This document shows, piece after piece, positions 1,388-13,543 of a stretch of 15,496 nucleotides of DNA (position 1 is the stretch's first letter; every line of letters starts with the position of its first letter). Source of the stretch: an uncultured Propionibacteriaceae bacterium (GTDB taxonomy: Bacteria; Actinomycetota; Actinomycetes; Propionibacteriales; Propionibacteriaceae). A program made the translations under genes and the position numbers. Location of the stretch: NCBI GenBank assembly GCA_936941515.1, contig CAKZJI010000211.1, positions 1 through 15,496 of the forward strand, written 5' to 3'. The notes beneath the pieces were generated by a model. That model worked only from the letters and a program-made list of their open reading frames with translations. It ran no database searches and was not told the origin of the DNA.

Positions 1388-2458
1388 TCAGGCTTCCTCC
1401 TGCTCGGCTGTGCCGAGCCAGAGTCCGAGGCCGTCGTCGATGTCCCAATCATTCACCCGGGAGGCCTCCCAGTCGGTGAGCAGGATGTCGCGGAAGGCCC
1501 GTTCAACCCGTTCACGGTCCGCGGCGTCGATGCCTGTGATCACCAGCCGTGTGTGACGTTCCCGCTCGCTAGCCCATGGCCCGGCGTCGCCGATGCTCAA
1601 CTGACCGCCCGCCCCATCCCAGGCCACCATCATCTGGGGGCGTGAGGGTACCCACGTCAGGCCGCGGCTGCGCAGGCGGCCCGCCCCGATGAGCTCCACC
1701 TGTTCGTAGAGACGGCCCGGGTGGAGCGCGCGGTCGCTGGAGAGCACCAGAGTCCATACGCCGTGACAGTCGACGCTGCGGTGGTGGTGTGGGCCGGTCG
1801 GGGTGCGACGCTGGGCGGCCAGGAAGTCGTGGGAGCGGCTCATCAGGGCTGCCGCGTCCAGGTGGTGAACCCGGGCGCGCCCCCGGTCGCCGACTAGGTG
1901 CTCCAGGACCGCGTTCGTGGTTGCATCCGGTTCTCCCAGGGTGGCGATCACATCCGCGAAGTCCAGCTGGGCGCAGGCTGCCTCGCCGACGGCGCGTTCG
2001 TCGGTGAGTGACAGCGTCAGTCCGCGGTCCTCCAGGAGGTCGTCGCCGAAGATGTCCTCAACCAGCGTTGACTCGTCGGCGACGGCCAGGACGGTTGCCA
2101 GTCTGGCATCGATCAGCCCGGTGCGGATGGCCTCGCGGAGCTGCCAGGTGACGGCCTCCGGCGCGGCGGTCAGGGGCAGTGACACCACTACGTGGCCCCA
2201 GGTGCGTCGTTCCAGCAGATTGGCCAGGGCGGGCACTAGGTCTTCACGTGTGGCGCAGGAGATGCAGCCGTGCTCAAGTGTCACGATGTCGGTCTCAACA
2301 ATGCCTGTCGCATCCCAGCAGCGCCGTCGCAGCTCGCCGTCGGGGGATAGGTCATGCTGGATCACCAGGGCGTCTGGGAGATCGACCAGGAGAGCGCTCG
2401 TCGCGGTTGCTCTGGCGACCTGGTCCCAGGCGGCCACCAGGGCGATGTCGGTGGTCAT
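1388..2458 (-). CDS. COG0523/CobW-like protein with degenerate GTPase motifs
   Basis: A 356-residue protein related to the CobW/YciC/ZigA (COG0523) metallochaperone GTPases. The ATG at 2458 overlaps the stop of rpmE2 as ATGA, so translation is probably coupled. Family resemblance is seen in [13 protein letters not shown] (residues 62-74), in the C-terminal half ([10 protein letters not shown] and [12 protein letters not shown]), and near the end ([19 protein letters not shown]). What is missing is striking. No GxxGxGK[ST] P-loop is present in the N-terminus, the Walker B-like region reads [14 protein letters not shown], the position of the NKxD specificity motif reads TLGEPD, and the usual CxCC metal motif is C65-I-S-C68. 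The protein therefore probably does not hydrolyse GTP. Its place in a Zur-type ribosomal-protein island suggests a role in zinc-starvation adaptation of ribosomes, as for mycobacterial Mrf. Family placement is fairly sure; function is inference. Confidence 0.82.
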
Positions 2459-2703
2459 CTGGTCTTCCCGTAGCGCTGCTGGAACTTCTCCACACGGCCC
2501 GTGACGCTGAGCTGACGGGCCTTGCCGGTGTAGAAGGGGTGGCTGTCGGCGGTGATCTCGACATCGACCAGGGGGTAGGTGTTGCCGTCCTCCCAGGTGA
2601 TGGTGGTCTTCGAGGTGATGGTTGAGCGTGTTAGGTACATCGTCTGGGTTGAGATGTCGCGGAAGACCACGGGGTGGTAGTCGGGATGGATGCCAGGTTT
2701 CAT
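2455..2703 (-). CDS. rpmE2: 50S ribosomal protein L31 type B (zinc-independent)
   Basis: An 82-residue L31 of the type B (YkgM-like) form. It begins [16 protein letters not shown] and carries the typical SHPFYTG and [12 protein letters not shown] segments. It has no cysteine, so it cannot hold the zinc ion of type A L31; such copies replace the zinc form under zinc starvation. Two ATG codons lie in tandem (2706 and 2703). The second is chosen because the family begins MKP and GGAG sits at a proper distance from it. It is first in a - strand unit with the CobW-like gene, with a 4-base overlap, and is divergent from rpmB across the Zur-box-like site. Confidence 0.95.
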
Positions 2704-2729
2704 CATGTCTCCAAGGGTTGCGGAACAAG

Positions 2730-2744
2730 TAGGAATCATTATCA
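2730..2744. promoter_or_regulatory. Zur-box-like operator in the divergent promoter region
   Basis: The 15-mer TAGGAATCATTATCA lies midway between rpmE2 and rpmB. By my count it matches 11 of 15 positions of an actinobacterial Zur-type palindrome, TGAAAATCATTTTCA. On the + strand TATCAT (2740-2745) can serve as a -10 for rpmB, with a start about 28 bases before its ATG. On the - strand GATAAT over 2737-2742 can serve as a -10 for rpmE2. A bound Zur dimer would block both promoters. Zur control of cysteine-free ribosomal-protein paralogs is well established in actinobacteria; binding here is inferred. Confidence 0.75.
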
Positions 2745-2779
2745 TTAGCACTCGTAGTTCGCACAACCCGAGGAGTGTC

Positions 2780-3016
2780 ATGTCTCGACATTGCCAGGTC
2801 ACCGGTGCCGCGCCGGGCTTCGGTCGCAACGTCCCCTGGTCCAAAAAGAGGACCGCGCGCCGCTTCAACGTCAACGTCCAGAGGAAGCGGTATTGGGTGC
2901 CGTCGCTGGGCCGTCATGTCAGGCTCACGGTCTCAGCGCGGGGCATCAAGGTGATCGATGCCCGCGGCATCGACGCTGTCGTGGCGGAGATGATCGCACA
3001 GGGGAAGAGGCTGTAG
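2780..3016 (+). CDS. rpmB: 50S ribosomal protein L28, zinc-independent paralog
   Basis: A 78-residue L28. It starts [17 protein letters not shown] and continues through the family core ([36 protein letters not shown]). It has a single cysteine (residue 5) rather than the two CxxC pairs of zinc-ribbon L28 forms, so it is a non-zinc type. ATG at 2780 follows AGGAG (2771-2775). It is the first gene of the + strand unit rpmB-rpmG-rpsN and the Zur-box-like site lies about 35 bases before its start, so it should be made when zinc is scarce. Confidence 0.95.
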
Positions 3017-3019
3017 GGC

Positions 3020-3187
3020 ATGGCGAAGAAGAACGACCTGCGTCCCCTGGTGAGGCTGCGCTCCACTGCGGGCACGGGGTACACCTACGTCACCCGCAAG
3101 AACCGTCGCAATGACCCTGACCGGATCGTGTTGCGCAAGTACGATCCGGTGGTCCGGCGGCACGTTGAATTCAAGGAGGCCCGCTGA
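3020..3187 (+). CDS. rpmG: 50S ribosomal protein L33, zinc-independent paralog
   Basis: A 55-residue L33 read directly from the sequence: [20 protein letters not shown], then [20 protein letters not shown] and a basic tail ending FKEAR. There is no cysteine, whereas zinc-binding L33 has two CxxC pairs. The start ATG at 3020 lies 3 bases after the rpmB stop, with GAAGAGG inside the end of rpmB as ribosome-binding site. Its stop overlaps the rpsN start as TGATG, which implies translational coupling in a single operon. Confidence 0.95.
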
Positions 3188-3492
3188 TGGCCAAGCGCTC
3201 CAAGATTGTGGCGAATCAGCGCAGGGCTCGCATCGTTGCTCAGCAGGCCGAGAAGCGGGCTGCGCTCAAGGCAGTCATTGAGAGCCCTGACGCCAGTGCG
3301 GAGGAGCGGTTTGCGGCTGTCCGCAAACTGGCTTCCCTCAAGCGCGACGGGTCTCCCGTTCGGCTGCGAAACCGGGATGCCGTCGATGGGCGACCGCGCG
3401 GCTATCTGCGGATTGCCGGGGTGTCGCGAGTGCGGTTCCGGACGCTGGCGCATCGCGGTGAGCTTCCGGGGATCGTGAAATCCAGCTGGTGA
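3187..3492 (+). CDS. rpsN: 30S ribosomal protein S14, zinc-independent paralog
   Basis: A 101-residue S14 of the long, cysteine-free class ([20 protein letters not shown] at the start; the conserved [17 protein letters not shown] and [15 protein letters not shown] at the end). The short zinc-binding S14 has a CxxC...CxxC ribbon that is absent here. A strong AAGGAGG (3173-3179) precedes the ATG by 7 bases and the start overlaps the rpmG stop. It closes the + strand alternative ribosomal-protein operon. An alternative S18 (rpsR2), often found in such operons in other actinobacteria, is not present here. No clear terminator follows. Confidence 0.95.
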
Positions 3493-3606: not shown

Positions 3607-5604
3607 ATGCCGCAGAAAACTCACAATCTGAGGAGGCGGCGCTTACCGGCGCTGCTTCTGGCGTTCTTCTTGAGCCTGGTGGGTCTTGCGACGGTGAGTC
3701 CGCAGGCCAGGGCAGCTGAAGTTGACGCCATCATCCCTGAGAGCATCAAAATCATCCGGGACTCCGATGAGCAACCGGATGTGTACCTGTGGGGCATGGT
3801 CCGAATCGAGGCGGACTGGGCCATTCCCGACAACTCTGGCAAGGCCGGCGACACCTTCACGCTGGGCCTGCCCGAGGAGTTCAAGGCCACCAGGGCCACC
3901 TTCGACCTGGTGGGACGTGACGGGGATCCGCTGACCTATGGCACCTGCGCTCTGTCCAGCAATGAGCTGATCTGCACACTCAACGAGAACGTTGAGAATA
4001 AGACCGACGTCGGCGGCTCGGTCTGGGTTGAGGCCCAGGTTGTCAAAACCACGGACCAGAGCAAGCTGAAGTTCGACCTGGGGAACCGAGGCAAGGTCGA
4101 GGTGCCGCTGCCCAACAACCAGCCTGGCATCGGCTACGGCAAGAGGATGCCCACCGACATTCAGAAGAGCGGCTGGTTCCCCGGCGAGGACGCCAGGACG
4201 CGGGAGGAGGATCCCTCGCTGGTGGCCTGGCAGATCGCTATCCCCGGTTCGAAGATCGCTGACCGGTCCAAGGTCGAGATCACCGACACCTTCAAGGTGG
4301 AGGGCATGGATCTCAATGTCGTCCCCGGATACCCGAAGGTCTTTTCGTCCACGCTGGATCCCCAGTGCTGGAATGAGAGCAAGCCTGATGGCTGCCGCAA
4401 GGATTACGACGAGAACACCACACCGTCGTTCACTTACCAGATCGATGAGACCGCCGACGTGGTGACTGCCACGCTGGACAACAAGGAGGAGAACTTCTCC
4501 GCCGACCGCATCTACGCGATGATTCTCTGGGTGAAGGCCCCCCAGCCGATCGCGGAGGGCACCAAACTGGTCAACAAGGCCATGGTCGACTCCACCGAGG
4601 TGAACGCGGAGACCACCAAGCGGGCCGCAGGAGGCGGCACCGGAGCCGGTAGGGCCCTCGGTCACCTGAAGGTGAGGAAGGTTGTCACCGGGGACAATGC
4701 CAACAGCCTGCCCGGCGACACCACCTTCCCTGTGACCTACAGCTATGAGGCCGGCGGCAGCACCAAGACGGGTGAGCTCTCCCTCACCGCGGATGGTGAT
4801 TTCGTCGACCTGCCCAACATCCCGAATGGCTCGGTTGTCACTCTGACGGAGAAGACCCCAGAGGTCGCAGGCTTCACCTTCGGCGACCCGGTGTTCTCAG
4901 GTGAGGGCGTCAACGACGGTGTTCCGGACGGCAACAGTGCGCAGATCAAGATCGAGGGCAGCAAGACCATTGACCTGACCCTGACGAACACCGTGAGCAA
5001 GGTCACAGCCGCGGTCACCCCGGTGATCCCCACCGTGACCCCGGGGGTCTGCAAGCCAGGCTCGACCACCCCGACCCCGCCCACGGTGACCGGTGCCGAC
5101 GACACCGACCAGATCGACTACAGCGAACCGAAAATCACCGTGGACGGCTCCGAGGCGACGGTCACCCTGACCGCCACCCCCAAGGGCGGCGCGACGATCG
5201 ACACCGCGAAGCTGCCGGAGGGCTGGTCGGTGGTGAATGGCGTGGTGACCTTCTCGAAGACCATCACGCAGCCGGACTGCTCGGCGAAGACCGTCTCCCC
5301 AGTCTCCCCGAAGGTGACCCCGGGGGTCTGCAAGCCAGGCTCGACCACCCCGACCGACCCCACCGTCGAGATTCCGAAGACGGAGGGTGTGACCTATGGC
5401 GAGCCGAAGATCGAACGTGCGGGAAAGAACAAGGTCAAGGTCACCCTGACCGCCAAGCCTGCACATGGCCAGGCCTTCTCCATTGACAAGCTGCCAGCTG
5501 GGTGGACACCCAACCAGGACGGCTCGGCCACCTATGTCCAGGTGCTGGATGATCCGGCATGCAAGGTTCCCAGCAAGCCAAGGCTTCCGAAGACTGGCTC
5601 CTGA
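3607..5604 (+). CDS. secreted adhesin-like protein with DUF5979 and terminal LPKTGS
   Basis: A 665-residue surface-type protein. The ATG at 3607 is preferred to one at 3556 because the purine-rich GGGAGAGGGAGAAG lies just before it and it gives a clean signal peptide: basic RRRR, a hydrophobic core about 14-30, and a cleavage-like ARA-A near 35-37. Residues about 38-340 resemble Ig-fold adhesin heads (WAIPDNSGKAGDTFTLGLPE), with cysteines at 114, 123, 254 and 263. Residues about 352-463 are a DUF5979/CnaB-like domain with candidate isopeptide residues K358, E415 and N461. Two repeats of about 90 residues follow (471-558, 564-652), each with a cysteine pair 76-77 apart. The chain ends SKPRLPKTGS, with no hydrophobic segment or basic tail, so the usual sortase signal is cut short. 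A terminator lies 45 bases after the stop. It is a paralog of the protein at 8688. Confidence 0.85.
   Translation: MPQKTHNLRRRRLPALLLAFFLSLVGLATVSPQARAAEVDAIIPESIKIIRDSDEQPDVYLWGMVRIEADWAIPDNSGKAGDTFTLGLPEEFKATRATFDLVGRDGDPLTYGTCALSSNELICTLNENVENKTDVGGSVWVEAQVVKTTDQSKLKFDLGNRGKVEVPLPNNQPGIGYGKRMPTDIQKSGWFPGEDARTREEDPSLVAWQIAIPGSKIADRSKVEITDTFKVEGMDLNVVPGYPKVFSSTLDPQCWNESKPDGCRKDYDENTTPSFTYQIDETADVVTATLDNKEENFSADRIYAMILWVKAPQPIAEGTKLVNKAMVDSTEVNAETTKRAAGGGTGAGRALGHLKVRKVVTGDNANSLPGDTTFPVTYSYEAGGSTKTGELSLTADGDFVDLPNIPNGSVVTLTEKTPEVAGFTFGDPVFSGEGVNDGVPDGNSAQIKIEGSKTIDLTLTNTVSKVTAAVTPVIPTVTPGVCKPGSTTPTPPTVTGADDTDQIDYSEPKITVDGSEATVTLTATPKGGATIDTAKLPEGWSVVNGVVTFSKTITQPDCSAKTVSPVSPKVTPGVCKPGSTTPTDPTVEIPKTEGVTYGEPKIERAGKNKVKVTLTAKPAHGQAFSIDKLPAGWTPNQDGSATYVQVLDDPACKVPSKPRLPKTGS
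5035..5355 (+). repeat. direct repeat within the first adhesin gene
   Basis: The two C-terminal repeats of the protein share an identical 42-base stretch, at 5035-5076 and at 5314-5355, offset by 279 bases (93 codons), starting GTGACCCCGGGGGTCTGCAA. The rest of the repeat units are clearly related but less alike. Such perfect identity at synonymous sites points to recent duplication or gene conversion. Confidence 0.85.
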
Positions 5605-5934
5605 ACCATCAATCAGCTCATTCCTGAGCTGGCGACCCTTTGCCCCTGCGGGGCCCGGCGTTGACCGGGCCCCGTTTCATGTTTCTGCCGATGCTGATGT
5701 GAAGGGCATTTGCATGATGGTCTCACGCATCGGGCTGTGACTGTATAGGCTCGGGTCGGGGGATGGCGCGAAAGGGAGCCCTATGACCAAGACCTGGTGC
5801 AACGTCGTGGCGGCGATGAGGTGGAGCAGATGGGGGCACGCCGGTGGTGATGGCGGAGCTGTTTCCCAGACGCCGATGGGGGAGGGGCGCCGCCTTGAAC
5901 CATGGCGGTGGCAGGACCCGGCAGAGGGCATCCG
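5605..5934 (+). other. intergenic stretch before the HEAT-like gene
   Basis: This stretch of about 330 bases holds the terminator of the upstream gene, then about 100 bases without an obvious gene, then a possible 51-codon ORF described separately. A weak -10-like TATAGG at 5744-5749 lies about 34 bases before that ORF, but no good -35 partner is seen. Confidence 0.5.
5649..5677 (+). terminator. rho-independent terminator after the first adhesin
   Basis: A perfect 10-bp stem, CGGGGCCCGG at 5649-5658 and CCGGGCCCCG at 5665-5674, has a 6-base loop and is followed by TTTC. It lies 45 bases after the adhesin stop codon. The short T run makes it a weak classical terminator, but this is typical for high-GC actinobacteria. 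Confidence 0.85.
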
Positions 5935-5938
5935 ATGA
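5783..5938 (+). CDS. possible small ORF coupled to the HEAT-like gene
   Basis: A 51-codon ORF starts MTKTWCNVVAAMRWSRWGHA and ends with its TGA inside the ATG of the next gene (ATGA at 5935-5938). AAAGGGAG precedes the ATG by about 4 bases. The overlap and ribosome-binding site are what a coupled leader or small protein would show. Against this, the peptide resembles nothing I know, has no clear domain, and is rich in W, R and G as chance frames in GC-rich DNA can be. It could be a leader that sets translation of the downstream gene, or no gene at all. Confidence 0.35.
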   Translation: MTKTWCNVVAAMRWSRWGHAGGDGGAVSQTPMGEGRRLEPWRWQDPAEGIR

Positions 5939-8043
5939 TCCCCCCCTGGCGGAGGCTGATCGAGGCCACCAGCTGGGGTCAGTTGGAGAACGCCTATGGG
6001 AGTGCCACGGGAACCGCAGCCGATCTGATGGCGCTGGCCGACCCGGAGGAGTCCGCCTATGCGTTCGATCAGCTGTCCATCTCTGTGCTGCGCCGAGGAG
6101 CCCTCTATTCCGCAACCTTCCCGGCGATCCTGGTGGTGGCGCACATGGCCGCCACCAGGGCCGCCGACCTGGAGTCGGCCTTTGCCCTGCTGGAGGACTT
6201 CGCGGAGAGCGTGGCGACGCTGCCTCAGGGGAATCCGCGTCACGAGCTCGCGCACCGAACCTTGGCGGAGATGCAGCTGATCCTGTTGCCCTTGGTTGCG
6301 GGGGAAGACGTCGCCGCGGCGCAGGCGGCTGCGCTCCAGGGCGTCACCGGGCAGCTTGCCCCCGGGGCGGGACAGATTCTGCTGGAGAGGGCCTGTCAGC
6401 AGCCCACCGACGATGTTGCACTGGCTGCGGCTGGGGCGTTGGGGCGTGCGGGCGGACAGCCCGGGGACCTGCCCTGCGACTGGCGTTTCGATGTGGTCGC
6501 CGCCTGGTTGAGGTTGCTCAGGGGGGAGGAGAGCGAGGCCGACATCGATCTCGTGACAACTCGCTGGGAGGATCTGCGTGAGGTGCGTGCTGCCGTCGAT
6601 CCCCACGCCCAGCGGCCATGGGACTTCCTGCCTGCGAGGAATCCGTCGGGAGCGCGCAGGCTCTACAGCCAGCTTCCAGATCCGGAGGCTGCGGCGCGGG
6701 GGCTCCTCGCGGTGATCCAGGCCTCACGCAGCGAGGCCGCCCGCGCCCAGATGAGCCTGCTGGAGATCCTCAGCCAGTTCTCGATCCGGGCTGATGTGGC
6801 GGTGTACATCCTGCAGCATCTTGTGCCGACGAGTGAGGTCTGCGACGCGCTCGACGCCTACGGCTCACGGGCAGCCCGCCCCAAGGCAGATGGCGATAAC
6901 CGCGCCGATGTCGCCGCGGCTCTGGCAGTGGCGGGTGATCCCCGTTGGGAGGAGCATCTGCTGGCCGTTCTTGAGACGAATCCGCGGGCCCTGCATGTGA
7001 TGGTCTCGTCGGTGAGCAGTGCGACGAAACTGGGCTACGCTTTTGGGCGTGCGCCGGTGGTCGGGTCGGAACGTCTGGCGCGTGAGATTGCGGAGGTTTT
7101 GGCGGAGGAGCGGATGGCCCGACCCTCAGAGGGCGTGAAAGCGGTTCTGTGGTGGCTGGCCCACTGGGGAAGCGCCTCGTCGAAGGTCGCGCGAGAACAG
7201 GTTCTGGCGTGGTCCGACCAACTGCCTGGCTCCGTCGCGCGTGTTGTGGCCTCGTGGGGCGACAAGGCGGATGCGCGACTCGTCCGTCAAATGGAGGGGA
7301 CGGACCCAGAGGTGCGGTTTGCCCTGGCCAGCCTCAGCGGTGAGCTGGAGGACTGGCGGGCGTTGCTGCACGAAGAGCCTCTCCTGCTGGCGAGCCGTGT
7401 GTTGGAGGCCTACCCGGAGCCGGATGACCCAGAGTTCATTGATTGGGCAGCGCAGTTCCTGAGTGGCGATGGAACCAACATCGGCCAGGAGCGGCTGCTT
7501 GCCGCGGATCGCCTGGTTGCCGCCGACGTGAGGGACGCAGTGGAGTTGTGGCCCGGGGTGGTGGAGCTGATCGATGCCGGGAACAGGGTTGCTGCGGAGG
7601 CCGCGTCACTTGCGGTGGTGTGGCTGGTGGAGGGCCGGTTGACGCGGGCCCATCGCAGTGAGCTGTCGAATCTGCTGCGTGATGTGGCCTCCAGCGGACG
7701 GGGCATCCGATGCGCTGCCCGGGAGACTGGTCGGGCAGCGGCCGCCCGGGCGTGGCTCCTGTTGGGTGAGGAACCTGCGGTGACACAGGACCTGCTGGTG
7801 GAGATCGTCCAGACGGGGCTGGCGGACTGGGGAGAGCATGGATCGGTCCTGGATCTGCTCACCACTATCGCCGAGGTCGCTGACGGGCCGTCCCGACAGG
7901 CTGTGCTCCACCCCGTGCGTGAGGTGCTGGCCTCTGACGCCAGGCTGCGGTTCTTCTCCAGCTGCATCATCAAGGATGAGGCAGAGCGTGCGGCATTGAC
8001 TGAGCTCACGGGCCGGCTCTCGGGCCCCCGCCACGGTGGCTGA
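5935..8043 (+). CDS. large HEAT-like alpha-helical repeat protein
   Basis: A 702-residue protein with no signal peptide or membrane segment, so probably cytoplasmic. It begins IPPWRRLIEATSWGQLENAYGSA, which resembles the N-terminus of actinobacterial HEAT-repeat hypothetical proteins. The rest is a long run of Ala/Leu/Glu-rich helices with helical-pair periodicity, as in armadillo/HEAT solenoids. Such proteins act as protein-binding scaffolds and some serve as immunity or regulatory proteins; nothing here shows the partner. The start at 5935 is preferred because AGAGGG precedes it, ATG overlaps the TGA of the small upstream ORF, and the family-like segment begins there. An ATG at 5902 would add 11 residues but lacks a good ribosome-binding site. 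It lies between the two adhesin genes with no sign of shared function. Fold is fairly sure; function is unknown. Confidence 0.8.
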   Translation: MIPPWRRLIEATSWGQLENAYGSATGTAADLMALADPEESAYAFDQLSISVLRRGALYSATFPAILVVAHMAATRAADLESAFALLEDFAESVATLPQGNPRHELAHRTLAEMQLILLPLVAGEDVAAAQAAALQGVTGQLAPGAGQILLERACQQPTDDVALAAAGALGRAGGQPGDLPCDWRFDVVAAWLRLLRGEESEADIDLVTTRWEDLREVRAAVDPHAQRPWDFLPARNPSGARRLYSQLPDPEAAARGLLAVIQASRSEAARAQMSLLEILSQFSIRADVAVYILQHLVPTSEVCDALDAYGSRAARPKADGDNRADVAAALAVAGDPRWEEHLLAVLETNPRALHVMVSSVSSATKLGYAFGRAPVVGSERLAREIAEVLAEERMARPSEGVKAVLWWLAHWGSASSKVAREQVLAWSDQLPGSVARVVASWGDKADARLVRQMEGTDPEVRFALASLSGELEDWRALLHEEPLLLASRVLEAYPEPDDPEFIDWAAQFLSGDGTNIGQERLLAADRLVAADVRDAVELWPGVVELIDAGNRVAAEAASLAVVWLVEGRLTRAHRSELSNLLRDVASSGRGIRCAARETGRAAAARAWLLLGEEPAVTQDLLVEIVQTGLADWGEHGSVLDLLTTIAEVADGPSRQAVLHPVREVLASDARLRFFSSCIIKDEAERAALTELTGRLSGPRHGG

Positions 8044-8687: not shown

Positions 8688-11534
8688 TTGATACTCAGAG
8701 AAAGGTCGACGTCTATGCGTGGCGTCGGCGTCGTGCTGATGGCGCTGCTCGTCGGCGTCATCTCGATGATTCCCGGTGTGAGGGCGTACGCCGACACGGT
8801 GTCCGCTGTCGACCCGGGCTCGATCACCATCAAATCTGCCAAGGACGACGGAGAACCGGTCTACGTCTGGGAGGACCTCGTGCTGACCGCCAAATGGCGG
8901 ATCCCGGACAACAGCGGCCAGGCGGGCCAGCAGTTCACCCTGGCCCTGCCCGAGCCGTTCTCCCTGAAGACCGGAGAATTCGAGCTGAAGGGCGTCGGTA
9001 ACGACACACTGACCTATGGGACATGCGCCGCGGTCGACAGGGAGCTCACCTGCACCCTCAACGGCAATGTGGTCGGCAAGACCCAGGTCCACGGGACCCT
9101 GACCCTCAACTTCAGCTCCAACAAGACCTACGACCAGGGCACCGTCAACGTGTCCGTCAACGGCCAGGACAAGAGCGTCCCGCTGCCACCGGCGAACAAC
9201 ACTGGCATCGGGTACAACCCGAGCTTCCCCGACAATGTGGGCAAGAGCGGCTGGGTTGATTCCAACAACCCCAAGCGCGTCAAGTGGCTCATCCGGTTCC
9301 CCGGACGGGACTTCACTGATCGTTCGAAGGTGACGGTTGCAGACACCTTCGCGGTCAATGGCATCGACTTGTCTGTGGTGCCGGATTCCGTGACCGTCTA
9401 CAAGCTGGTGTCCAGCGCCAAGTGCTGGAATGAGAACCGCGATCCGGCCTGCTACATCGAGCTCTATCCAAACAAGGACGTCAACTACAAAGGCAACCCC
9501 AAGATCACCGTCGACATCCAGGATGGCAAGTTCACCACCGACATTGACCTCCAGACCCAGAACTTCAGCGACCAGCACATGTACATCGTCGAGGTGGAGC
9601 TGGAGAGCAAGGAGGACATCCCGGTCGGCGCGGAGCTTGTGAACAAGGCCGACGTCGGAGGAAAGGCGACTGAGGGTGTCATCACCCGCGACATGACGGG
9701 CTCCGGCACCGGAAGCGGACTCGATGGGTCGGTTGGCCACATCAGCCTCAAGAAGAACGTTGCCGGTGGCAACTTCGCTGCCGCAGACTTCCCGGTGAAA
9801 TACTCTTACGAAGTCAAGGGCACGCTGAAGGAAGGCACCCTGATCTTGAAGGGCGACGGTACCCCCGTCTCCCTGGCGAACATCCCCCACGGAACCCGGG
9901 TCGCCCTCGCCGAGGACGTGGCTGCCCTTCCCGCGGGAGTCACCTTCCAGGACCCAGTGTTCTCCGGTGACAACGTCGCCGACGGTGGAGCGAACAGCCC
10001 CGCAGCGACCGTTGAGGTGACCGGTGGCGGCAAGACCACCGAGGTGACTCTCACCAACACCGTGCAGGAGGACAAGGTCGCGACTCCGGTTGATCCTGTG
10101 GTGACTGCTGGGGTATGTGCGCCGGGTGCGACCAAGCCGTCTGATCCGACGGTGAAGGTGGCTCAGACTGAGGGCATCACCTATGGGCAGCCGAAGATCA
10201 CCACGGCTGGCGACAAGGCCACGGTGACTGTTGTCGCGACCTTGGAGGCTGGCTACACGTTCCCGGCGAATCTTCCTGCGGGCTGGACCCTGAACCAGGA
10301 CGGGACCGCCACCTACACCAAGACGGTGAATGTGCCGACGTGTGAGTTGCCGAAGGTCGCTGTGGTCTCCCCGACGCTGAGTCCCGGAACCTGCGCGCCG
10401 GGTGCGACCAAGCCGTCTGACCCGACGGTGAACGTTCCCCAGACCCCCGGCATCACTTACGGTCAGCCGGATATCAAAGTTGCGGATGGGAAGGCGACGG
10501 TGACCCTCGTCGCGACTCCGGATGCCGACAAGCAGATTGATGCTGATGCCCTGCCTGCGGGCTGGGCCATGAACCCAGATGGCAGGACTGCCACCTTCAC
10601 CGGTGAGGTCCAGCAGCCGAAGTGTGAGGTGGAGGTGACTCCCGTCAATCCCGAGGTGGAGGAGGGCGTGTGTGTGCCGGGTTCGGCCACGCCATCTGAT
10701 CCGACGGTGAAGGTGGCTCAGACCAAGGGCATCACCTATGGGCAGCCGAAGATCACCACGGCTGGCGACAAGGCCACGGTGACTGTCACCGCGACCTTGG
10801 AGGCTGGCTACAAGTTCCCGGCGAATCTGCCTGCCGGCTGGGTGATGAACCAGGACGGATCCGCCACCTTCACCAAGACGGTGAACGTGCCGCCCTGCGG
10901 ACCGGGCGTGGTGTCTCCGGTTGATCCTGTGGTGAACGCCGGAACCTGCGCGCCGGGTGCGACCACGCCGTCTGATCCGACGGTGGAGCTGGCCCAGACC
11001 AAGGGCATCAAGTACGGCGACCCGGTGATCAAGACCGCAGACGGGAAGGTGACTGTCACCGTCGTTGCGACCTTGGAGGCTGGTTACACGTTCCCGGCGA
11101 ACCTGCCTGCGGGCTGGACTGCGAACCAGGACGGGACCGCCACCTTCACCAAGACAATGGATGTGTCGGCTTGCCAGGGCGTTCCTGTCACCCCGGTGTC
11201 CCCGAAGATCACCCCCGGCGTCTGCGTTCCCGGATCGAAGACCCCGAGCGCCCCGAAGGTCGAGATCCCGAAGGTGCCGGGACTCACCTATGGTGATCCG
11301 AAGATCCAGGTCGTGGGACGAAAGGTCGTCATCACTGTCCAGGCCACTCCAGACAGCGGATACAGCGTCAATGCATCCGACATGCCTGCCGGATGGACGC
11401 TGAATCAGGATGGCTCTGCCACCTTCACCCTCGTCGCCGATCAACCGGTCTGCAGTACCCCGGTGAAGCCGAGAATGCCCAAGACCGGAGCCAACGGCCT
11501 TGAGGCTCTGCTGAGGCTGTTCGCTCAGGCCTGA
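8688..11534 (+). CDS. secreted adhesin-like protein with DUF5979 and five cysteine-pair repeats
   Basis: A 948-residue paralog of the protein at 3607. TTG at 8688 is chosen as start because AGGGAGG (8673-8679) lies 8 bases before it; an ATG at 8715 would shorten the signal peptide by 9 residues and still leave it workable. A hydrophobic core (about 12-30) and a VRAYA-D cleavage-like site follow. Residues 37-345 are the Ig-fold adhesin-like head with WRIPDNSGQAGQQFTLALPE and cysteines 113, 122, 246 and 255, matching the first paralog. Residues 350-459 are a DUF5979/CnaB-like domain (candidates K355/K356, E409, N457). Five repeats follow (466-552, 559-646, 650-737, 742-829, 835-922), each with two cysteines 75-77 apart. 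The chain ends MPKTGANGLEALLRLFAQA: an LPXTG-like box, but only a short weakly hydrophobic tail and no terminal basic residues. Surface display or secretion is likely; covalent anchoring is doubtful. Confidence 0.85.
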   Translation: MILRERSTSMRGVGVVLMALLVGVISMIPGVRAYADTVSAVDPGSITIKSAKDDGEPVYVWEDLVLTAKWRIPDNSGQAGQQFTLALPEPFSLKTGEFELKGVGNDTLTYGTCAAVDRELTCTLNGNVVGKTQVHGTLTLNFSSNKTYDQGTVNVSVNGQDKSVPLPPANNTGIGYNPSFPDNVGKSGWVDSNNPKRVKWLIRFPGRDFTDRSKVTVADTFAVNGIDLSVVPDSVTVYKLVSSAKCWNENRDPACYIELYPNKDVNYKGNPKITVDIQDGKFTTDIDLQTQNFSDQHMYIVEVELESKEDIPVGAELVNKADVGGKATEGVITRDMTGSGTGSGLDGSVGHISLKKNVAGGNFAAADFPVKYSYEVKGTLKEGTLILKGDGTPVSLANIPHGTRVALAEDVAALPAGVTFQDPVFSGDNVADGGANSPAATVEVTGGGKTTEVTLTNTVQEDKVATPVDPVVTAGVCAPGATKPSDPTVKVAQTEGITYGQPKITTAGDKATVTVVATLEAGYTFPANLPAGWTLNQDGTATYTKTVNVPTCELPKVAVVSPTLSPGTCAPGATKPSDPTVNVPQTPGITYGQPDIKVADGKATVTLVATPDADKQIDADALPAGWAMNPDGRTATFTGEVQQPKCEVEVTPVNPEVEEGVCVPGSATPSDPTVKVAQTKGITYGQPKITTAGDKATVTVTATLEAGYKFPANLPAGWVMNQDGSATFTKTVNVPPCGPGVVSPVDPVVNAGTCAPGATTPSDPTVELAQTKGIKYGDPVIKTADGKVTVTVVATLEAGYTFPANLPAGWTANQDGTATFTKTMDVSACQGVPVTPVSPKITPGVCVPGSKTPSAPKVEIPKVPGLTYGDPKIQVVGRKVVITVQATPDSGYSVNASDMPAGWTLNQDGSATFTLVADQPVCSTPVKPRMPKTGANGLEALLRLFAQA
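10083..11453 (+). repeat. five tandem repeats of about 270 bases
   Basis: Units at 10083-10343, 10362-10625, 10635-10898, 10911-11174 and 11190-11453 encode the domain that begins PVxPxVxxGxCxPG and ends with GW..NxDG.AT and a second cysteine. Units 1 and 3 share runs of about 60 identical bases (e.g. GGGCATCACCTATGGGCAGC and onward) offset by 555 bases, and units 1, 3 and 4 share GCGACCTTGGAGGCTGG. Units 2 and 5 are more divergent. The pattern indicates recent recombination among units. Confidence 0.9.
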
Positions 11535-11544
11535 TCAATGCTGG

Positions 11545-11576
11545 GGCGGACTCTGGCCCTGTGGTGAGAGTCCGCC
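11545..11576 (+). terminator. terminator after the second adhesin
   Basis: A perfect 10-bp stem, GGCGGACTCT (11545-11554) and AGAGTCCGCC (11567-11576), with a 12-base loop, lies 10 bases after the stop codon. CAGCCTTT follows, so the T run is weak. Confidence 0.75.
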
Positions 11577-11584
11577 GCAGCCTT

Positions 11585-11645: not shown

Positions 11646-11682
11646 GAAAGCGGGGCTCCGGCCTTCCTGGAGCCCCGCTTTC
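11646..11682. terminator. strong bidirectional terminator
   Basis: A perfect 14-bp stem, GAAAGCGGGGCTCC (11646-11659) and GGAGCCCCGCTTTC (11669-11682), with a 9-base loop. The AAA/TTT at its ends lets it act in both directions. It is a second, stronger stop for the adhesin transcript. Confidence 0.85.
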
Positions 11683-12223: not shown

Positions 12224-13543
12224 ATGTCCATACCCAGCGATTCCCATAATCCTCCCCCGCAGCCTGGCCCCGGCCATCCTGGGGGAGCGGGAACCAGCCA
12301 GCCGACGCCACCGCACCCCTATGCCACGCAGGGGAGCGCCCAGCAGGCAGGCTCCCAGTTCGCTTCACCAACGCAGGGCCGGCCTCAGGTTCAGCAACAG
12401 CATGGCTACCAGAACGTACCGCCCCAGCAGAGGCCGCAGGGCCCTCAGGGAATGCCAGGTCAGCAGATGTATGCGACAGGCTACCCCCAGCAGGGCTACG
12501 GGCAGCCGGCCCCGAAAAAGCCGAAGACGGGGCTGTGGATCGGTCTCGGCGTCGTCGCCGTGGTCCTAGTCGGGGCTCTCGTCCTGGTCCTCTCAGGTAT
12601 CCTGCCGGGAACCAGGACCGCTGAAGGCGAGCCTGGGGGCGGTTCACAGCTTCCTGCCGACCCCAAGGAAGCCGCCAAGACCATTGCCAAGGACTATCTG
12701 ACGGCTCTCTCCGAGGGACGCGCTGATGACGCCAAGGCCTTCCTGAGCTCCACGTCGTTCTCGGACGCCTCCCTGCTCACTGCCGAGGTTCTGAAGGACT
12801 CCGTTAGCCGCGCGCCGATGACGGACATCAAGGTCGACGAGCCGACGGGGGACGCACCGTATTTCAGTGTCTCCGTGTCCTACGCTCTGGGGGGCGCCAC
12901 GGCCACGGACGAGTACCGGATCAACACTCGCAACAAGCAGATCCAGTTACACCTGCCCACCTTGTACCTGTCCCGGGCGGACAAGGTCGATGTGACGGTG
13001 AACGGGGTCGCTGTCAAAGCGACGACTCCCGCAGTGTTCCCCGGAAGCTATCAGGTAGCAAGTGCCAACAAGTACCTGGAATTCACCGGAACCACCGAGA
13101 CCGTTATCAAGACATCGGAGGACGGCGGCTACATGGCGATGGAGCTGAAGGTGAGTCAGGCGGGCATCGACCTGTTCCGTGAGAAGGTGCTACCGGAGGC
13201 CAAGGCCTGCCTCGCCTCGGCCAATCTCGACCCCGGCTGTGACATGGCCATGAGCGGCACGCTGCAGGACGGCACCACCGTGGCTGATGGCTCACTCAAG
13301 CGCACTCAGAGTTCCGAGGAGAGCATCGTGATGGAGAGCGTCGTCCCCGAGGTGGGCAGCTCGGTTCCAACCATCATCTCATCCAGTAAATTCGGGCAGT
13401 TCGACGTCACCGGCACCTGCACCAGACCCAGCGGGGAGACGGCCGACTGCAAAATCTACGGCCTGGGCAAGGGGACGAGGTGGGCCAAGGCCTCGATCAA
13501 CGTGGCCGACGCCGAACCGAAGGTGACCTGGGAAGGAAGGTAG
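12224..13543 (+). CDS. single-pass membrane protein with Pro/Gln-rich N-tail
   Basis: A 439-residue protein with three parts. Residues 1-100 are a disordered Pro/Gln/Gly-rich tail (for example QGMPGQQMYATGYPQQGYGQ) ending in the basic KKPK. Residues about 104-127 form one transmembrane helix (LWIGLGVVAVVLVGALVLVL). Residues about 130-439 form a large domain outside the membrane: the segment after the helix (DPKEAAKTIAKDYLTALSEG at 146-165) resembles DUF4878/NTF2-like domains found after such helices in actinobacteria, followed by a mixed beta region with four cysteines. The positive charges just before the helix predict an inside tail and outside C-terminal domain. ATG at 12224 follows GAAAGGA. 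It is probably monocistronic, since a terminator follows at once. Its function is unknown; an envelope-stress or cell-wall role would be a guess. Confidence 0.8.
   Translation: MSIPSDSHNPPPQPGPGHPGGAGTSQPTPPHPYATQGSAQQAGSQFASPTQGRPQVQQQHGYQNVPPQQRPQGPQGMPGQQMYATGYPQQGYGQPAPKKPKTGLWIGLGVVAVVLVGALVLVLSGILPGTRTAEGEPGGGSQLPADPKEAAKTIAKDYLTALSEGRADDAKAFLSSTSFSDASLLTAEVLKDSVSRAPMTDIKVDEPTGDAPYFSVSVSYALGGATATDEYRINTRNKQIQLHLPTLYLSRADKVDVTVNGVAVKATTPAVFPGSYQVASANKYLEFTGTTETVIKTSEDGGYMAMELKVSQAGIDLFREKVLPEAKACLASANLDPGCDMAMSGTLQDGTTVADGSLKRTQSSEESIVMESVVPEVGSSVPTIISSSKFGQFDVTGTCTRPSGETADCKIYGLGKGTRWAKASINVADAEPKVTWEGR

What the first reader, a model, noticed from the sequence alone, without database searches (positions are those of the whole stretch)
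5550..5604. First adhesin ends exactly at its sortase motif (LPKTGS, then stop)
A sortase substrate normally needs, after LPXTG, a hydrophobic segment of about 15-20 residues and basic residues. Here the chain stops one residue after the box. I checked the downstream sequence in all three frames and found no hidden membrane segment, so a single nonsense change or frameshift does not explain it. The paralog at 8688 has a related defect. Two neighbouring proteins sharing the form KPR[LM]PKTG at or near the end suggests either decay of both or a secreted, non-classical use of the motif, for example as a peptide recognised in trans.
Basis: partly seen in the sequence, partly recalled or inferred. 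Interest (0 to 1): 0.7.

Follow-up and report, generated by a model that had tools for sequence, protein, structure and literature searches.

The report
Adhesins ending at their sortase motif
A family of surface-adhesin-like proteins from Arachnia and related bacteria ends exactly one residue after the LPXTG cell-wall motif, without the usual membrane tail, and has kept the motif while the sequence beside it changed; this bare end is likely read by a sortase enzyme, which would make it an unusually short natural signal for attaching a protein to the cell wall.

Summary
The first adhesin (3607-5604) ends KPRLPKTGS-stop; a terminator-like hairpin follows at 5648-5675 and no downstream frame encodes a membrane segment. 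In a whole-protein search, 72 of 79 homologue clusters end exactly LPXTG (or PPKTG) plus one residue. The paralogue (8715-11534) carries MPKTG plus 14 residues, shared by 4 of those 79 clusters. A profile search added one close relative with an ordinary tail (P0119) and 11 distant partial relatives, all 11 tailed, so the tail was probably lost in an ancestor while the motif stayed. Over a tree of 29 representatives (10.4 changes per column) the P, T and G of the motif changed 0 times; positions -9 to -30 changed 4-19 times each. 'Motif plus one' equals the published minimum for sortase A ligation in vitro. I infer that a sortase reads the bare C-terminus. No genome was available, so no sortase was shown and anchoring is untested. 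Cutibacterium acnes DsA1, LPXTG without a membrane or charged tail, is a published precedent: a new variant of a known kind.

The parts
3607..5604 (+). First adhesin, 665 aa, ends KPRLPKTGS-stop
   Evidence: ORF; 99.85% identical to P0001
3607..3714 (+). Predicted Sec signal peptide (36 aa, ending ARA), by eye; no signal-peptide program was run
   Evidence: basic start, hydrophobic core (best 19-residue mean 2.19 in the first 45 residues); no lipobox Cys seen
3793..4053 (+). Big_8 Ig-like domain of the adhesive region
   Evidence: PF17961, 56.3 bits
4666..4995 (+). DUF5979 domain
   Evidence: PF19407, 52.2 bits
5584..5601 (+). LPKTGS, the C-terminal six residues
   Evidence: sequence; conserved end in 72 of 79 clusters
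5602..5604 (+). TGA stop
   Evidence: sequence
5648..5675 (+). Terminator-like hairpin, 11 pairs
   Evidence: consensus scan and fold
8715..11534 (+). Paralogous adhesin, 939 aa from ATG 8715 (ORF listed from TTG 8688)
   Evidence: ORF; 41% identical to the first over 667 columns
11475..11489 (+). MPKTG of the paralogue
   Evidence: sequence
11490..11531 (+). 14 residues after the paralogue's motif, ANGLEALLRLFAQA; too short and not hydrophobic enough for an ordinary membrane tail
   Evidence: sequence; same last 40 residues in P0004, P0055, P0056, P0066
11540..11682 (+). Two hairpins downstream of the paralogue (about 11540-11581 and 11646-11682), possible terminators; not called by the consensus scan
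   Evidence: fold; absent from the list

Best explanation
The six C-terminal residues LPXTGx are likely the whole wall-sorting signal of these adhesins: after predicted Sec export, a sortase would cut between Thr and Gly of the free C-terminus, release only a Gly-X dipeptide and join the adhesin to the cell wall. Shown here: the bare end, its conservation in the family, the lack of another membrane span, and a predicted MSCRAMM-like fold. Inferred: export, the sortase, the cut and the wall link. Without a stop-transfer tail part of the protein should escape, so a mixture of wall-bound and secreted adhesin is expected. The tail was probably lost from an ordinary signal like that of P0119.
For: 72 of 79 clusters from the whole-protein search end motif plus one residue. 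On 29 representatives (of 113 short-ended proteins) the P, T and G of the motif change 0 times over 10.38 changes per column, L twice, X only between K and R, while the last residue changes 14 times but the length after Gly never does. A review states that C-terminal LPXTG must be followed by at least one residue for sortase A ligation (PMC8229434, passage). Relatives with tails exist: P0119 (Gram_pos_anchor 23.3 bits, cut-off 20) and P0123-P0133 (11 of 11). The model (mean pLDDT 84.4) best matches wall-anchored adhesins UafA, Cnm and CNA. No other membrane span in 29 of 29 representatives (best 19-residue mean after residue 45 is 1.44).
Against: No genome was held, so no sortase has been shown here. 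No wall linkage is tested. The stop-transfer role of the normal tail (abstract of PMC4617865, listing) argues that a tail-less substrate is not held for sortase. The review says Gly is preferred after the motif, but 0 of 113 short-ended proteins end in Gly; in the 108 counted the last residue is Ala in 83. The paralogue keeps the motif with 14 further residues. The short end was found only in this adhesin family, which queried the tail, returned no other family.
Confidence: 0.55

Rival explanations
1. The adhesins are soluble, secreted proteins and the exposed LPXTGx is used in trans, by sortases of neighbouring cells or of other species in the oral biofilm.
For: No stop-transfer segment. C. 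acnes DsA1, also without such a tail, is described as both surface-associated and secreted (PMC5527093, passages).
Against: No data here on other cells' sortases; own-cell use needs fewer assumptions.
Confidence: 0.17
2. The conserved end is read by something other than a sortase, for example a C-terminal protease, a secretion or glycosylation factor, or an assembly partner.
For: The conserved unit may be longer than LPXTG: residues -7 and -8 change only 3 and 1 times. No sortase was shown.
Against: The conserved letters are the sortase pentapeptide, and tailed relatives carry a sortase-type motif at that place.
Confidence: 0.15
3. Vestige: the tail was lost in an ancestor and the motif persists through short time or gene conversion between copies.
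For: A single clade of short-ended rows is not rejected (AU p 0.361, or 0.145 without the paralogue rows). Repeats in the paralogue could recombine.
Against: 0 changes at P, T and G against 4-19 at positions -9 to -30; conversion should also make the linker uniform.
Confidence: 0.08
4. A normal tail is added by read-through, frameshift or an assembly error.
For: Three of the 79 clusters have odd or partial ends (P0076, P0077, P0078).
Against: No membrane segment in three frames within 240 nt; terminator-like hairpin 43 nt on; the same end in 72 of 79 clusters. DNA beyond the stop was seen only in this window.
Confidence: 0.02

Closest known systems
Classical LPXTG cell-wall sorting signal (Pfam Gram_pos_anchor PF00746)
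   Same: LPXTG motif near the C-terminus of a predicted exported adhesin
   Different: No hydrophobic segment and no basic tail; 1 of 26 members scanned matches PF00746, the tailed P0119
Cutibacterium acnes DsA1 (PA25957)
   Same: LPXTG without membrane-spanning domain and charged tail; thought to be surface-associated and secreted (PMC5527093, passages)
   Different: LPXTG at position 411 of 432, so about 17 residues follow; PT-repeat protein; homology to this family not tested. The window paralogue, with 14 residues after the motif, is the nearer analogue
MSCRAMM adhesins (CNA, Cnm, UafA, ClfA, SdrG)
   Same: Predicted fold of the adhesive region (sequence match to ACE 2z1p only at E 0.004)
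   Different: Low identity (10-18%); those proteins are anchored by a full sorting signal (recalled)
C-terminal sortase tags used for ligation in vitro
   Same: LPXTG at a C-terminus followed by at least one residue (PMC8229434, passage)
   Different: Engineered tag with Gly preferred; here a natural end, mostly Ala
Split fimbrial genes of Propionibacterium freudenreichii
   Same: Unusual LPXTG arrangement in the same family of bacteria (PMC5902329, passages)
   Different: There the motif lies in small separate ORFs after truncated fimbrial genes, read by the authors as interfering with fimbriae

Membership tests
Classical sortase substrate | LPXTG motif near the C-terminus | tested here: met
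   5584-5598; 72 of 79 clusters
Classical sortase substrate | Hydrophobic segment after the motif | tested here: not met
   One residue follows; downstream frames at most 0.83
Classical sortase substrate | Basic C-terminal tail | tested here: not met
   Chain ends ...GS
Classical sortase substrate | Match to Gram_pos_anchor or LPXTG_anchor models | tested here: not met
   P0001 no match; 1 of 26 members in each library
Classical sortase substrate | N-terminal signal peptide | tested here: inconclusive
   Judged by eye and hydropathy; no signal-peptide program run
Classical sortase substrate | Sortase encoded in the same genome | not testable with these tools
   No genome held; no actinobacterial centre accepted
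Classical sortase substrate | Covalent link of LPXT to peptidoglycan | not testable with these tools
   Needs wall digests and mass spectrometry
Tail-less LPXTG protein (as DsA1) | LPXTG without membrane-spanning domain and charged tail | tested here: met
   DsA1 from PMC5527093
Tail-less LPXTG protein (as DsA1) | Sequence homology to DsA1 | not tested
   No DsA1 sequence was fetched
MSCRAMM-type adhesin | Tandem Ig-like adhesive fold | tested here: met
   Prediction only: model pLDDT 84.4, Foldseek probability 1.00 to UafA, Cnm, CNA, SdrG, ClfA
MSCRAMM-type adhesin | Binding of a host matrix or plasma protein | not tested
   Needs a binding assay

The most novel reading that the evidence does not exclude
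Arachnia and close Propionibacteriaceae run a tail-less sortase pathway: their adhesins have shed the membrane-stop tail and a sortase captures free LPXTGx C-termini, so that the whole wall-sorting signal is reduced to the enzyme's six-residue minimum.
Probability: 0.4. Interest if true: 0.8.

Novelty: new variant of a known kind. Interest (0 to 1): 0.6.

Why it matters
The accepted sorting signal needs a membrane-stop segment and a basic tail so that sortase can catch its substrate. A family that keeps only LPXTG plus one residue, under strong conservation, would show that the enzyme's minimal peptide is enough in a living cell. It would also mean that predictors of wall proteins overlook a class: Gram_pos_anchor matched 1 of 26 members scanned, and that one is tailed. 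It turns the unexplained tail-less LPXTG of C. acnes DsA1 into a question that can be tested by comparison.

Tried and rejected
Local decay or assembly error: rejected by 72 of 79 clusters with the same end, the empty downstream frames and the terminator-like hairpin.

Read-through or frameshift to a hidden tail: no membrane segment within 240 nt in three frames. DNA past the stop was available only for this window.

Other anchors: Pfam and NCBIfam scans of 26 members listed no domain that I recognise as wall-binding except the P0119 anchor. No further membrane span in 29 of 29 representatives.

A second protein family with the same end: a search with the last 40 residues of P0014 gave 74 proteins, each with at least one Pfam domain of this family. 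This query selects for the tail and is not used as evidence of frequency; its length band (0.55-1.75 times 941 aa) also excludes short proteins.

Other phyla: the pattern for [L/F]PKTGx-stop matched 0 of 11 Companilactobacillus genomes and 53 of 299 Bacillota genomes, 59 places. Counted by hand from that table, the backward control has about 77 matches, so there is no excess. Of the 30 of 59 places fetched as loci, the longest frame from a start codon is 96 residues. The other 29 were not read.

Relatives elsewhere: genome contigs gave one weak partial hit (Companilactobacillus, 31%); plasmids one partial hit (a Listeria record, 16% of the query, not followed); phages none; viral contigs 0 matches to a KPGLPxTGx-stop pattern.

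Sortase: a Companilactobacillus sortase was compared with the PDB to find a query suited to Propionibacteriaceae; I could identify none and did not search further.

Several losses of the tail: on the best tree P0119 falls among short-ended rows and three state changes are needed for the three kinds of end, but one clade is not rejected (AU p 0.361 and 0.145). No claim is made. Several long branches make the base unsure.

Papers: ten searches showed no title or abstract start about LPXTG-plus-one ends in Arachnia; the library is open-licence PMC only, and listings were capped. The C. acnes class F sortase paper (doi 10.1042/BCJ20180885) is not held, so its substrate list was not seen.

Full report
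What is in the window. The first adhesin runs from ATG 3607 to TGA 5602-5604 (665 aa) and ends KVPSKPRLPKTGS. Its start looks like a Sec signal peptide (by eye). It has Big_8 and DUF5979 domains. A model built from 26 family members has mean pLDDT 84.4, with the last ten-residue stretches low, and its best Foldseek matches in the PDB are the MSCRAMM adhesins UafA, Cnm, CNA, then SdrE, ClfA and SdrG among others; TM-scores by target length are 0.46-0.62 for the first ten. By sequence the family profile finds only one PDB entry, the collagen adhesin 2z1p, at E 0.004. The second adhesin (ATG 8715 to 11534, 939 aa) is 41% identical to the first over 667 columns, carries C-terminal repeats with a spacing near 276 nt and ends KPRMPKTGANGLEALLRLFAQA.

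The gene stops there. A terminator-like hairpin of 11 pairs (10 G-C) begins 43 nt after the stop (a consensus match). In three frames up to 240 nt past the stop, the best 17-residue hydropathy mean is 0.83, and 1.11 for the paralogue, against 1.88-2.84 in the 12 tailed relatives.

The short end is the common state of the family. The whole-protein search gave 79 clusters; 72 end in motif plus exactly one residue. The seven others are four clusters of the paralogue (84-96% identical to the window's copy, with the same last 40 residues), two ends that look frame-shifted (P0076, P0078) and one partial record (P0077). Many clusters are close to one another (A. propionica), so 79 is not a count of independent events. 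Named members come from Arachnia propionica, [Pseudopropionibacterium] massiliense and Propionibacterium sp. oral taxon 192. The profile search (125 hits, 120 listed) added 18 proteins: 5 short ends, one odd end (P0120), one close relative with a full tail (P0119, 44% identical to the first adhesin) and 11 distant proteins that share only part of the query (14-41% covered; Microbacterium, Leucobacter and Agromyces among the named), 11 of 11 with a hydrophobic and basic tail. P0119 matches Gram_pos_anchor at 23.3 bits, cut-off 20; 1 of 26 members scanned matches that model. In sum, 133 distinct proteins: 113 short ends, 4 paralogue ends, 12 tails, 4 odd ends. Of the 113, 36 came from one search, which used the tail as its query and says nothing about frequency.

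The motif is under selection. On a maximum-likelihood tree of the N-terminal part, 29 short-ended representatives (of 113) span 10.38 changes per column. P, T and G of the motif change 0 times, L twice (to M or P), X 6 times but only between K and R. The last residue changes 14 times (A, S, V, I, T, N, D), yet the number of residues after Gly does not change in these rows, which were chosen for that end. Positions -9 to -30 change 4-19 times each. In 378 ungapped N-terminal columns the mean is 6.1, and 9% of columns do not change, so a single unchanged column is not rare, but three in a row at the end of a fast-changing linker are. Positions -7 and -8 change only 3 and 1 times, so the recognised unit may be longer, near PGLPKTGx.

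Why one residue. [quoted passage not shown] The natural ends sit at exactly that minimum, although none of the 113 ends in Gly and most end in Ala (83 of the 108 counted). This match is the main reason to think of a sortase; it is an inference.

How it would work. Export, cleavage between Thr and Gly by a membrane-bound sortase, release of Gly-X, and linkage to the wall. Without a stop-transfer segment part of the substrate should be lost. C. acnes DsA1 fits: LPXTG at position 411 of 432, no membrane-spanning domain or charged tail, thought to be both surface-associated and secreted, and some strains lack the motif (PMC5527093, passages). C. acnes is reported to have one sortase, of class F (PMC7913060, passage), and 19 predicted substrates (PMC8200545, passage) from a study I could not read.

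Limits. No genome was held for the window. No sortase is shown, other Arachnia proteins could not be surveyed, and the number of tail losses is unsettled (AU p 0.361 and 0.145). Wall attachment is untested. In Bacillota the same end is at background level (59 matches, about 77 in the backward control, 299 genomes), and 0 of 30 places read is in a frame longer than 99 residues.

Verdict. Observation confirmed; decay rejected; non-classical use of the motif favoured. A new variant of a known kind, with a published tail-less precedent.

Noticed in passing
window 1388-3492: A cluster of ribosomal proteins L31 (- strand), L28 and S14 (+ strand; a small ORF between them looks like L33 by eye) beside a CobW-type GTPase that matches the MRF model below its cut-off (132.8 of 375 bits). 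This resembles the zinc-starvation set of alternative ribosomal proteins (recalled), and an AT-rich stretch near 2733-2747 recalls a Zur box.
   Followed up: partly
window 10082-11173: The paralogue has repeats spaced about 276-279 nt, and its four homologous clusters range from 755 to 1031 aa with identical last 40 residues, which suggests variation in repeat number of the stalk.
   Followed up: partly
window 5902-8043: An ORF of 713 aa between the two adhesins has no Pfam or NCBIfam match at E 0.001.
   Followed up: no
window 12224-13543: A 439-aa protein with a membrane segment and a weak match to the Rv0361 C-terminal model (22.6 bits, cut-off 37).
   Followed up: no
P0002 (homologue of the first adhesin): Its end reads PPKTGA, so the first motif residue is Pro; P0116 and P0117 have MPKTGN.
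   Followed up: no
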